A stretch of 43,895 nt of DNA from a virus. Location of the stretch: positions 1-43,895 of IMG/VR virus record IMGVR_UViG_3300022680_000020; one strand, 5' to 3'. How positions within the stretch are numbered: position 1 is the stretch's first letter; every line of letters begins with the position of its first letter. The notes beneath the pieces are model-generated. The model had not been told where the DNA came from. It searched no databases and worked only from the letters and a program-made list of their open reading frames with translations. The position numbers and the translations under genes were made by a program. Shown here piece after piece: positions 7,197-9,338 of the stretch.

Positions 7197-7465
7197 TAGG
7201 TCAGATCTACAAGCTCGACGAAGATGGCCGAGAGGTCGTGCTCGCAACCTATACCGTGGTCGACGGGCGCGCCGTGGGCGACTGGCGCCTCGACGTGAAC
7301 CCCGACTTTGTCGAGGACGTCGAGGCCGGCGTCTACGGCCTCGGGGGCGTTTTCGTTCGGCCGTCCGACGGCGAGGCGTTCGTCGAGGCGCTCGACGTCG
7401 CATTCTCGGCGAGCTCACGGATCAATGGTAGGACGAAGGACGAGCATTCTACCAGCGGGGGCTGA
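7193..7465 (+). CDS. Small protein downstream of MuF-kinase; possible partner or immunity protein
   Basis: 90 residues, ATGA overlap with the MuF fusion gene. The N-terminal half is beta-rich with tight turns ([33 protein letters not shown]) and the centre contains GVYGLGGVFVRPSDGEAFVEAL. The last 25 residues are encoded within the 94-bp direct repeat and reappear at the C-terminus of the 8739-9320 protein. In MuF polymorphic-toxin loci an immunity gene commonly follows the toxin, so this is the natural candidate, but no family is recognised. Confidence 0.65.
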
Positions 7466-7483
7466 CACAATGACCGACGGCAT
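7390..7483. repeat. 94-bp direct repeat, left copy
   Basis: Identical to 9245-9338 over 94 bp (offset 1855 bp). It covers the 3' end of the 7193 gene and the start of the 7470 gene (MTDG). After the repeat, similarity resumes briefly: GGGGCGCGG at 7484-7492 matches 9346-9354 after a 7-bp insertion in the right copy. The two copies bracket an accessory block. Confidence 0.95.
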
Positions 7484-8024
7484 GGGGCGCGGAATGAACG
7501 CCTTGCGGGTCCCTGGTCTTATGGCTCTGGTCGATGCGCTCATCGAAGGCGAATTCTGCGACGACCGCGACCGCGACGACCTCGTCGCGACCACGGCGCG
7601 GTGGGCTGAGACTTGCGGGCTCATCGACGCGAGCCAGCGCGAGCACGCAAAGTCGATGGCCGATGAGGGTCGCAAGCGCGCCATCATTGCAGATTATGTC
7701 GCCCTGGCAAAGCAGACGCGGAGTGTCAGCCGGCGCTCGGCGAAGATTGCGGCGCTGGGAATCAACCCATCGACCTTGAACCATTGGGCCAGGCGCTTGC
7801 ATGGGCCAGGCTATCTCGCTCAATTTGGACCGCCGTCGGCAACGGCGCTCGTGCTCGAATACGTGCGCCGCAGACCAGGCTCGACGCGGAGACAGATACT
7901 CGCGCACTCCGGCGTCTCGCCGAAGTCTATGCCTGGCGCGCTGGATTGGAGCTTGCGGCGCGGTCGCCTTCGACGCGAGCGAGACGACGGCGAGCGGCTC
8001 TGGCGATGGTACGCGAATGTGTGA
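7470..8024 (+). CDS. Hypothetical DNA-binding-like protein of the accessory block
   Basis: 184 residues from ATG 7470, with GGGGG-type SD 10 bp upstream. Two regions look like winged-helix or HTH segments: VSRRSAKIAALGINPSTLNHWARRLHG (about 90-115) and ATALVLEYVRRRPGSTRRQILAHSGVSPKSMPGALDWSLRRGRLRRE (about 125-172), ending in WRWYANV. The second reads like a winged helix (helix, turn, helix, then a hairpin ending in ERLWRWY). Codon choice (more GAA, TTG, CTG and CGC) differs from the surrounding CTC/GAG-rich genes, suggesting transfer. A truncated copy of its start (MTDGIEHGAR-stop) lies at 9325-9357. Confidence 0.65.
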   Translation: MTDGMGRGMNALRVPGLMALVDALIEGEFCDDRDRDDLVATTARWAETCGLIDASQREHAKSMADEGRKRAIIADYVALAKQTRSVSRRSAKIAALGINPSTLNHWARRLHGPGYLAQFGPPSATALVLEYVRRRPGSTRRQILAHSGVSPKSMPGALDWSLRRGRLRRERDDGERLWRWYANV

Positions 8025-8433
8025 TTGGCTCGAGACCTACTCGAAGCATCGGCGCAAGCTCGTCGCGCAGGCGGCTCGACTGGTGCCAGAGCGACACGCC
8101 GAGGACGTCGTGCAAGACGCCGCCGAGCTCGCGCTGCGACGAGGCGCCAGGCGGTTTGCGTGGTATTGGGCCATGATGACGGCGCGCCGGTTGTATCTGA
8201 TGAGGCGCGATGGTCTGACGGCGACCGGGCGCGCAAGCGGCGTCGGGCACCGCAACGTCGCCGTCGCGATGCAAGCGGCGACGGTCGTTGCGCTGGTCGG
8301 CTCCGAGACCGCGCACCGCATTGCCTGCGGCGAAGCGTCACGGGACGCACGCCGCGCTAGGGGGAGACTTGAGCGAAGGCACGAAGTACGCGCTCGGCGT
8401 TGCGCTATCGGCTGCAGTGCCGCTATGGTTTGA
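8017..8433 (+). CDS. Hypothetical protein with sigma-region-2-like segment
   Basis: 138 residues from ATG 8017, overlapping the previous stop by 8 bp. Residues about 10-70 (RKLVAQAARLVPERHAEDVVQDAAELALRRGARRFAWYWAMMTARRLYLMRRDG) follow the pattern of sigma70-family region 2: an RLV helix, an acidic AEDVVQDA, then aromatic/ARRL. The C-terminus has no clear region 4 and is unusually Arg-rich. It could be a degenerate sigma-like regulator or an unrelated helical protein. The last 65 bp overlap the next gene, so its true end is less certain. Confidence 0.5.
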   Translation: MCDWLETYSKHRRKLVAQAARLVPERHAEDVVQDAAELALRRGARRFAWYWAMMTARRLYLMRRDGLTATGRASGVGHRNVAVAMQAATVVALVGSETAHRIACGEASRDARRARGRLERRHEVRARRCAIGCSAAMV

Positions 8434-8749
8434 GCGAGTCGCGAGGTATCGGCCTGAAACGCGCCTCGAGCGAGCGCGGGCGGCGGGCGAGATATTGGCG
8501 TGCTACGGCGACGTGCTGCAGTTTCGCGCTAAGGCCCGGCGCGGTGATGACGCTGAGCATAGGGACTTGGTAGATATGTGGCTCGCGGAGACGGGAGACT
8601 ACCACGATTTGCGACCGGGCCCGACGCCTGGCGAAGTATTCAACGCGCTCGCCGAAGGCATCGCCTGCGCGACGCTGCCGGGCGATTGCTCGGATGAGGT
8701 GTTAGAGATGCGCAACCGATACGTTTGGAGTGTCTTCGATGTGCTCTGA
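8369..8749 (+). CDS. Hypothetical protein of the accessory block
   Basis: 126 residues if translation starts at TTG 8369, which has GGGGAGA immediately upstream (8361-8367). The frame is open further upstream, but that part only shadows the 8017 gene. The protein is mostly helical (ALGVALSAAVPLWFERVARYRPETRLERARAAGEILACYGDVLQFRAKARRG) with a DYHDLRPGPTPGEVFNALAEGIA segment. No family recognised. It overlaps the next gene's start, so all four genes of the block appear translationally coupled. Confidence 0.55.
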   Translation: MSEGTKYALGVALSAAVPLWFERVARYRPETRLERARAAGEILACYGDVLQFRAKARRGDDAEHRDLVDMWLAETGDYHDLRPGPTPGEVFNALAEGIACATLPGDCSDEVLEMRNRYVWSVFDVL

Positions 8750-9320
8750 GTACCGAGAGCTCGACGGTTCACGAGTCGTCGCGATTCTGGAAAAGGATTG
8801 CGTGCCCGCGCTGCAATGGGAAGGCGACCCTATCGACGCCGGCAGAATCGTCGGGCTCGTGCGCGACGTCGGCTTTCTGACGCCGGTCTGGCTGACTGAG
8901 GTCCTAGAGCGCAACGCAGAGTCCCTTCGCGTCGTCGTGCGTTGCATGCTCGGCGCGGCGGCTGCCTGCGACTGGTATGGACCGCCGACTTGGGAAAGCG
9001 TTTATGAGCCTGGCGCCTGGCACGCGATGGACACTGGCCCTTGCAATTACGACGTTTACGGAGTCTTGCCAGGCGCCAACGCTGGCCCGCCCGTCGTCGT
9101 TGACTTGGCGTACGTTGTCGTGCCGCGCTTGCGCATGTTCGTGCCGCCGCCGTATCGGCGCAAGTATTGCTGGTATACTGAAAAGGCCGTAGCAGATAAC
9201 CAGCGCCGAGCCCGCTTGTCTTCGATGCGCTCTGAATATCGAGAGCTCGACGTCGCATTCTCGGCGAGCTCACGGATCAATGGTAGGACGAAGGACGAGC
9301 ATTCTACCAGCGGGGGCTGA
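8739..9320 (+). CDS. Hypothetical protein with a C-terminus acquired from the direct repeat
   Basis: 193 residues from ATG 8739 (GTG 8730 is in the same frame). The N-terminus MCSEYRELDGSR is echoed near the end by MRSEYRELDVAF. The DNA at 8733-8766 and 9219-9252 matches at 31 of 34 positions. From 9245 the reading frame enters the 94-bp repeat and borrows the same 25-residue tail as the 7193 protein. The gene looks like a fusion made at a short CTCGACG microhomology between a second copy of its own start and the phage gene. The middle (GPPTWESVYEPGAWHAMDTGPCNYDVYGVLPG) resembles no family I know. Confidence 0.5.
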   Translation: MCSEYRELDGSRVVAILEKDCVPALQWEGDPIDAGRIVGLVRDVGFLTPVWLTEVLERNAESLRVVVRCMLGAAAACDWYGPPTWESVYEPGAWHAMDTGPCNYDVYGVLPGANAGPPVVVDLAYVVVPRLRMFVPPPYRRKYCWYTEKAVADNQRRARLSSMRSEYRELDVAFSASSRINGRTKDEHSTSGG

Positions 9321-9338
9321 CACAATGACCGACGGCAT
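9245..9338. repeat. 94-bp direct repeat, right copy, with truncated gene start
   Basis: Identical to 7390-7483. In this copy the ATG at 9325 (matching the start of the 7470 gene) leads only to MTDGIEHGAR and then TAG 9355-9357, a stub that ends directly before the GTG of the 9358 frame. It appears to preserve the uninterrupted phage junction, with the 1855-bp block inserted to its left. Confidence 0.95.

What the first reader, a model, noticed from the sequence alone, without database searches (positions are those of the whole stretch)
7390..9338. Accessory block bracketed by 94-bp perfect direct repeats
Repeats 7390-7483 and 9245-9338 flank four overlapping genes whose codon choice differs from the core genome. 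The right copy keeps only a stub of the 7470 gene (MTDGIEHGAR-stop). The repeat spans the end of one gene and start of the next, so each copy leaves intact reading frames: insertion donated a complete C-terminus to the last block gene. No transposase or integrase is present. It may be a moron acquired by homologous exchange, or a duplication-divergence remnant able to excise by recombination between the repeats.
Basis: seen in the sequence. Interest (0 to 1): 0.7.

Follow-up and report, generated by a model that had tools for sequence, protein, structure and literature searches.

The report
Recombination scar beside phage toxin-like gene
A phage carries a small block of imported-looking accessory genes, flanked by a duplicated piece of its own gene ends, in a spot where related phages carry different extra genes; this looks like a scar of ordinary phage gene shuffling rather than a new mobile element.

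Summary
The repeat is real: 94 identical bases at 7390-7483 and 9245-9338; past a 7-base indel, 9 more bases match, to 7492/9354. The four genes between them (B-E) have atypical codon usage: 1 of 546 overlapping core windows scores as low. The block lies between the MuF head gene and the prohead protease. In 72 of 97 related loci that hold both, this interval ranges from none to about 6 kb; 29 of 72 have 400 bases or more. The right copy is a broken mosaic: a 36-bp, 92% copy of the D-end/E-start junction fused to a copy of the A-end/B-start junction. No recombinase hit and no inverted repeat joining the block ends was found. Best reading: an imported, regulatory-looking module in a MuF cargo slot, with the repeat as a recombination scar. 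A relative, L095, shows a similar scar around another gene. Excision is plausible but untested.

The parts
5058..7196 (+). MuF head protein with proline-rich linker and C-terminal PI3/PI4-kinase-like domain (candidate toxin/effector tip)
   Evidence: Pfam Phage_Mu_F 8.4e-23 and PI3_PI4_kinase 1.2e-6, 29.1 bits against cut-off 27.1; phrog_324 3.3e-64; NCBIfam TIGR03843 6.6e-6, below its cut-off
7193..7465 (+). Gene A, 90 aa, overlaps the MuF gene by 4 nt; in the position of an immunity gene; its 3' end is the left repeat
   Evidence: no PHROG or Pfam hit; no similarity to the equivalent small ORF of L035
7390..7492 (+). Left copy of the direct repeat: 94 bp exact plus 9 bp after a 7-nt indel; end of A, start of B
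7470..8024 (+). Gene B, 184 aa, probable DNA-binding protein with MarR-like C-terminus; homologue in L035 (36%)
   Evidence: phrog_1687 5.5e-4
8017..8433 (+). Gene C, 138 aa, may resemble ECF sigma region 2; homologue in L035
8369..8749 (+). Gene D, 126 aa, unknown; homologue in L035 (33%)
8731..8766 (+). D-end/E-start junction, first copy of the 36-bp repeat
8739..9320 (+). Gene E, 193 aa, no convincing relative found; its last residues and stop come from the two copied junctions
9217..9252 (+). Second copy (92%) of the D-end/E-start junction, fused to the right repeat within GCTCGACG
9245..9354 (+). Right copy of the direct repeat (94 bp exact, 7-nt indel, 9 bp)
9325..9357 (+). Stub of B: MTDGIEHGAR-stop
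10090..11286 (+). Prohead protease (DUF2213), right border of the variable slot

Best explanation
The slot between the MuF head gene and the prohead protease of this phage lineage holds varying cargo (shown). Here it holds a MuF-kinase-like fusion, a small gene A in the immunity position, and a module B-C-D-E of foreign-looking codon usage (shown). B is a probable DNA-binding protein and C may be sigma-region-2-like, so the module is probably a transcription-control or conflict cassette (inferred). The repeat is a recombination scar: about 103-110 bp spanning the A/B gene junction were duplicated when the module was inserted by two staggered exchanges during phage replication, and the right copy is a dead fragment that supplies E with its stop (inferred). 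Recombination between the copies should occasionally delete 1,855 bp, leaving A intact plus the stub (inferred).
For: B-E codon usage is atypical as a set while A, F, G are core-like. The slot varies among 72 loci and holds, for example, a papain-family peptidase gene in L011 and a MazG gene in L053. B-C-D is found in the same order and place in L035. The right joint switches from E-start-like to A-end sequence within an 8-bp word. The phage encodes a phrog_69 exonuclease. L095 shows a parallel: an HTH_17 gene between terminase and portal flanked by duplicated terminase 3' ends, the right copy lacking 26 nt. 94 bp exceeds the minimal pairing lengths of 23-34 bp quoted in PMC3945230 (passages).
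Against: No related empty site was found, so the order of events is not polarised. The start of B aligns with the start of its L035 homologue, which suggests the stub is a copy of B and fits duplication then deletion as well. The joining word GCTCGACG occurs 27 times on the + strand, so the microhomology is weak evidence. The codon usage of the A tail does not discriminate (26% of core windows as low). The MuF kinase-like part, outside the repeats, deviates about as much as the block (-0.113 against -0.123 per codon). An annealing partner of the exonuclease could not be identified.
Confidence: 0.5

Rival explanations
1. Tandem duplication followed by deletion. Unequal exchange between an E-start-like sequence and A, at GCTCGACG, duplicated the stretch from the A tail onward; most of the second copy was later deleted, leaving the A-end/B-start fragment.
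For: The right joint, E-start-like sequence fused to the A tail, is what such an exchange gives; the B start aligns in register with L035; the 36-bp D/E copy is another decayed duplicate.
Against: Full E lies upstream of the joint and is followed by a second E start, so a third, mostly lost unit or an extra event is needed; it does not by itself explain the deviant codon usage of B-E.
Confidence: 0.3
2. A mobile or integrative cassette with the 94-bp repeats as attachment ends, able to move by itself or with a recombinase in trans.
For: Long direct repeats at the 3' end of a gene resemble attachment sites (recalled); the gene inserted in L095 is HTH_17, a domain also seen in excisionases (recalled).
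Against: No recombinase-family hit in the block; none of 14 inverted pairs in 7350-9400 joins its two ends; L035 has the genes without the repeat; the right copy is chimeric.
Confidence: 0.07
3. Assembly artefact or chimeric contig.
For: A single IMG/VR contig, no reads available, no near-identical record found.
Against: The copies end in different unique sequence, differ by a 7-nt indel, and the joint keeps an open reading frame; L095 shows a similar structure with diverged copies.
Confidence: 0.06

Closest known systems
MuF polymorphic toxin loci of temperate phages (PMC5576092, passages seen; PMC12226406, abstract and section list seen)
   Same: MuF gene directly after the portal gene, long C-terminal extension with an enzyme-like domain, small ORF directly after it
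   Different: PI3/PI4-kinase-like tip (no word beginning with kinase in the main text of PMC5576092); the further B-E module and the junction duplication
Phage mosaicism by relaxed homologous or illegitimate recombination (PMC3945230, passages seen)
   Same: Foreign-looking segment between conserved phage genes
   Different: About 100 bp of a gene junction is duplicated on both sides
Morons of temperate phages (recalled)
   Same: Extra genes between late genes, deviant codon usage
   Different: No clear promoter or terminator bounding the block; the genes overlap as in an operon
Two-subunit sigma factor SigO-RsoA (PMC8103513, passages seen)
   Same: C may be a lone sigma region 2 next to a DNA-binding protein
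   Different: B was not shown to be a region 4; no sequence family supports C

Membership tests
MuF polymorphic toxin locus | MuF domain gene directly after the portal gene | tested here: met
   Portal 2945-4747, MuF 5058-7196
MuF polymorphic toxin locus | C-terminal extension of at least 100 aa (cut-off of PMC5576092) | tested here: met
   712 aa against 310 aa for the MuF of L011; the match to L011 ends at residue 339
MuF polymorphic toxin locus | Toxin domain in the extension | tested here: inconclusive
   PI3_PI4_kinase 29.1 bits against cut-off 27.1; toxicity not testable here
MuF polymorphic toxin locus | Small ORF directly downstream (immunity position) | tested here: met
   Gene A, 90 aa, 4-nt overlap; its function is unknown
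Transposon or integrative element | Recombinase gene in the unit | tested here: not met
   No recombinase hit for B-E in PHROGs, Pfam, NCBIfam
Transposon or integrative element | Terminal inverted repeats with short target duplication | tested here: not met
   None of 14 inverted pairs (12 bp or more) joins the two block ends; the flanking direct repeat is about 100 bp
Moron | Accessory genes between conserved phage genes | tested here: met
Moron | Own promoter and terminator | tested here: inconclusive
   In 7000-10100 one promoter-like site, on the minus strand (shuffles 0.4), and one terminator-like site inside C (shuffles 2.1)
ECF sigma factor (gene C) | Sigma region 2 fold | tested here: inconclusive
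   Model pLDDT 58; no Foldseek match at E 0.001; the ten VIA-align rows with Z 6.0-5.1, of 233 chains, come from sigma-factor or transcription-initiation entries (that the chains of 9m98, 9m9d and 4cxf are sigma factors is recalled)
ECF sigma factor (gene C) | Sigma region 4 | tested here: inconclusive
   Pfam and NCBIfam give no family hit for C; most of residues 61-95 of the model are under pLDDT 50

The most novel reading that the evidence does not exclude
Gain of accessory genes in this phage lineage may recurrently leave 100-240 bp duplications of the upstream gene's 3' end (window and L095, at two different gene junctions), making each newly gained block a self-deletable cassette; and the block here, with L035, may define a phage module built around a lone sigma-region-2 protein and a DNA-binding partner placed behind a MuF toxin.
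Probability: 0.15. Interest if true: 0.6.

Novelty: new member of a known kind. Interest (0 to 1): 0.33.

Why it matters
If right, it shows how a phage can take up cargo behind a head protein without breaking neighbouring genes, and gives a scar by which recent, perhaps still reversible, gene gains can be recognised. The B-C-D module, seen in two distant phages, is a small gene set of unknown function beside MuF effectors.

Tried and rejected
Similar DNA in phage records: none. Repeat-derived 25-base pattern in viral contigs: none. Relatives of B and E in viral contigs, genome contigs (E only) and phage records: only the contig of L035, for B; the contig scans need short exact peptide patterns and miss distant relatives. 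E in 282 genomes of one phylum: 1 of 282, weak and with 4 stops inside, judged chance. B profile in 282 and 398 genomes: 0 of 282 and 2 of 398, both weak and judged unrelated to this locus by eye. B profile in 10 genomes or records: the L035 contig and a weak match in the L038 contig (1.8e-4) on the strand opposite to tail-like genes, judged chance. Defence-system library: no hit for 6 proteins. The model of the 40015-40908 protein is poor (pLDDT 47) and its fold search gave nothing at E 0.001, so no annealing recombinase is claimed. Solved-structure sequence searches for that protein, B and C gave nothing useful. ADP-ribosyltransferase-like look of the L032 MuF extension: no Pfam hit. Conserved boundary sequences of lambdoid phages (recalled idea): the phrase occurred in none of the 10 papers listed of 59. 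Paper searches on morons with direct repeats and on gene gain by short homology gave listings only. Wrong-frame readings of C and D were redone.

Full report
Observation. The two 94-bp copies are exact and far beyond chance: the longest repeat in 50 simulated sequences was 18. After a 7-base indel, 9 more bases match, so the duplicated segment is 103 bases on the left and 110 on the right. It spans the end of gene A and the start of gene B. A second, more diverged junction copy was missed: the 36 bases around the D stop and E start (8731-8766) recur at 92% at 9217-9252 and overlap the right repeat by the 8-bp word GCTCGACG. The right side is thus a mosaic of two copied gene junctions, and gene E reads in frame through both to the copied stop of A.

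The block. B-E are atypical in codon usage as a set: 1 of 546 core windows of the same size, which overlap each other, scores as low. Singly their z values lie within the range of other genes of the phage; the long gene at 25983 and the exonuclease have lower ones. A, F and G are core-like. The MuF kinase-like part, outside the repeats, also deviates (z -2.9).

Context. The window is a whole IMG/VR record of 43,895 bases of a contractile-tailed phage (tail sheath phrog_205) with terminase, portal, MuF and DUF2213 protease. No integrase or transposase hit appeared among the ORFs scanned; not every ORF was scanned. Of 97 related loci (L002-L098), 72 have both MuF and protease matches. Measured from MuF residue 320 to the protease start, and so including MuF extensions, the interval is under 200 bases in 36 of 72, 400 or more in 29 and 1,000 or more in 20; after removal of near-duplicates 28 of 65 have 400 or more. 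The window has 4,072 bases by the same measure. Tested cargo: a papain-family peptidase in L011 and MazG in L053; other peptidase-like and intein-like contents were seen by eye.

The key comparison. L035, whose capsid protein is 49% identical to that of the window, has in this slot a MuF protein with another C-terminal extension, a small ORF with no similarity to A, then homologues of B (36%), C (41% over 37 residues, E 7e-5) and D (33%) in the same order and overlapping one another likewise, directly before the protease. Direct repeats there are at most 29 bases and imperfect. So B-C-D occupies this slot in a distant phage and does not need the repeat. E had no convincing relative.

A parallel. 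Of the 97 other loci, one (L095) has an exact direct repeat of 94 bases or more at 300 or more bases distance. It flanks an HTH_17 gene between terminase and portal; the repeat is the terminase 3' end, and the right copy lacks 26 bases. Six of 97 loci (L010, L015, L064, L073, L087, L095) have repeats of 60 bases or more at 80% or more identity. I examined only some of these; L073 and L010 look different from the window. A duplication scar around a gained gene therefore rests on two cases.

Gene functions. B is a probable DNA-binding protein (phrog_1687, 5.5e-4 for B and 1.8e-6 for its L035 homologue). C shows a motif like sigma region 2 (by eye, recalled). A low-confidence model puts ten sigma or transcription-initiation chains on top in a second look at 233 chains, Z 6.0-5.1, within the range that the tool warns may be only a common helical arrangement. 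The MuF C-terminus passes the Pfam cut-off for PI3/PI4 kinases narrowly. MuF fusions to enzymes are described as likely effectors (PMC5512222, passages seen).

Mechanism. I favour insertion with staggered exchanges (0.5) over duplication and deletion (0.3). The direction is not settled because no empty site was found. Deletion between the copies is expected from their length but was not seen.

Verdict. A real repeat, correctly located, with a correct accessory label, but most likely an ordinary recombination scar rather than the ends of an element.

Noticed in passing
L095:265-1211: An HTH_17 gene between terminase and portal flanked by duplicated terminase 3' ends; the right copy lacks 26 bases.
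   Followed up: partly
L035:3736-6714: MuF protein that appears to contain an intein (Pfam Intein_splicing 0.0011, below its cut-off) and a peptidase-like C-terminus (by eye); similar intein-like extensions by eye in L002, L015, L047, L056.
   Followed up: no
window 6185-6304: 9-base array coding a Val-Ala-Pro linker between the MuF and kinase-like domains.
   Followed up: no
window 38948-40908: phrog_69 exonuclease next to a phrog_3657 protein of unknown function, a usual place for an annealing recombinase (recalled); the fold test was uninformative.
   Followed up: partly
L010:7631-7760 and 11026-11155: 130-bp repeat (89%) flanking the portal-MuF stretch.
   Followed up: no
L073:2544, 2952, 4776: Three copies of a repeat among minus-strand cargo genes in the slot, perhaps shared promoters.
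   Followed up: no
window 9358-9681: ORF with 12-base tandem units coding Cys-Asp-Ser-Thr, directly after the stub.
   Followed up: no
window 36591-37348: Two adjacent small membrane-like proteins that look like paralogues by eye.
   Followed up: no
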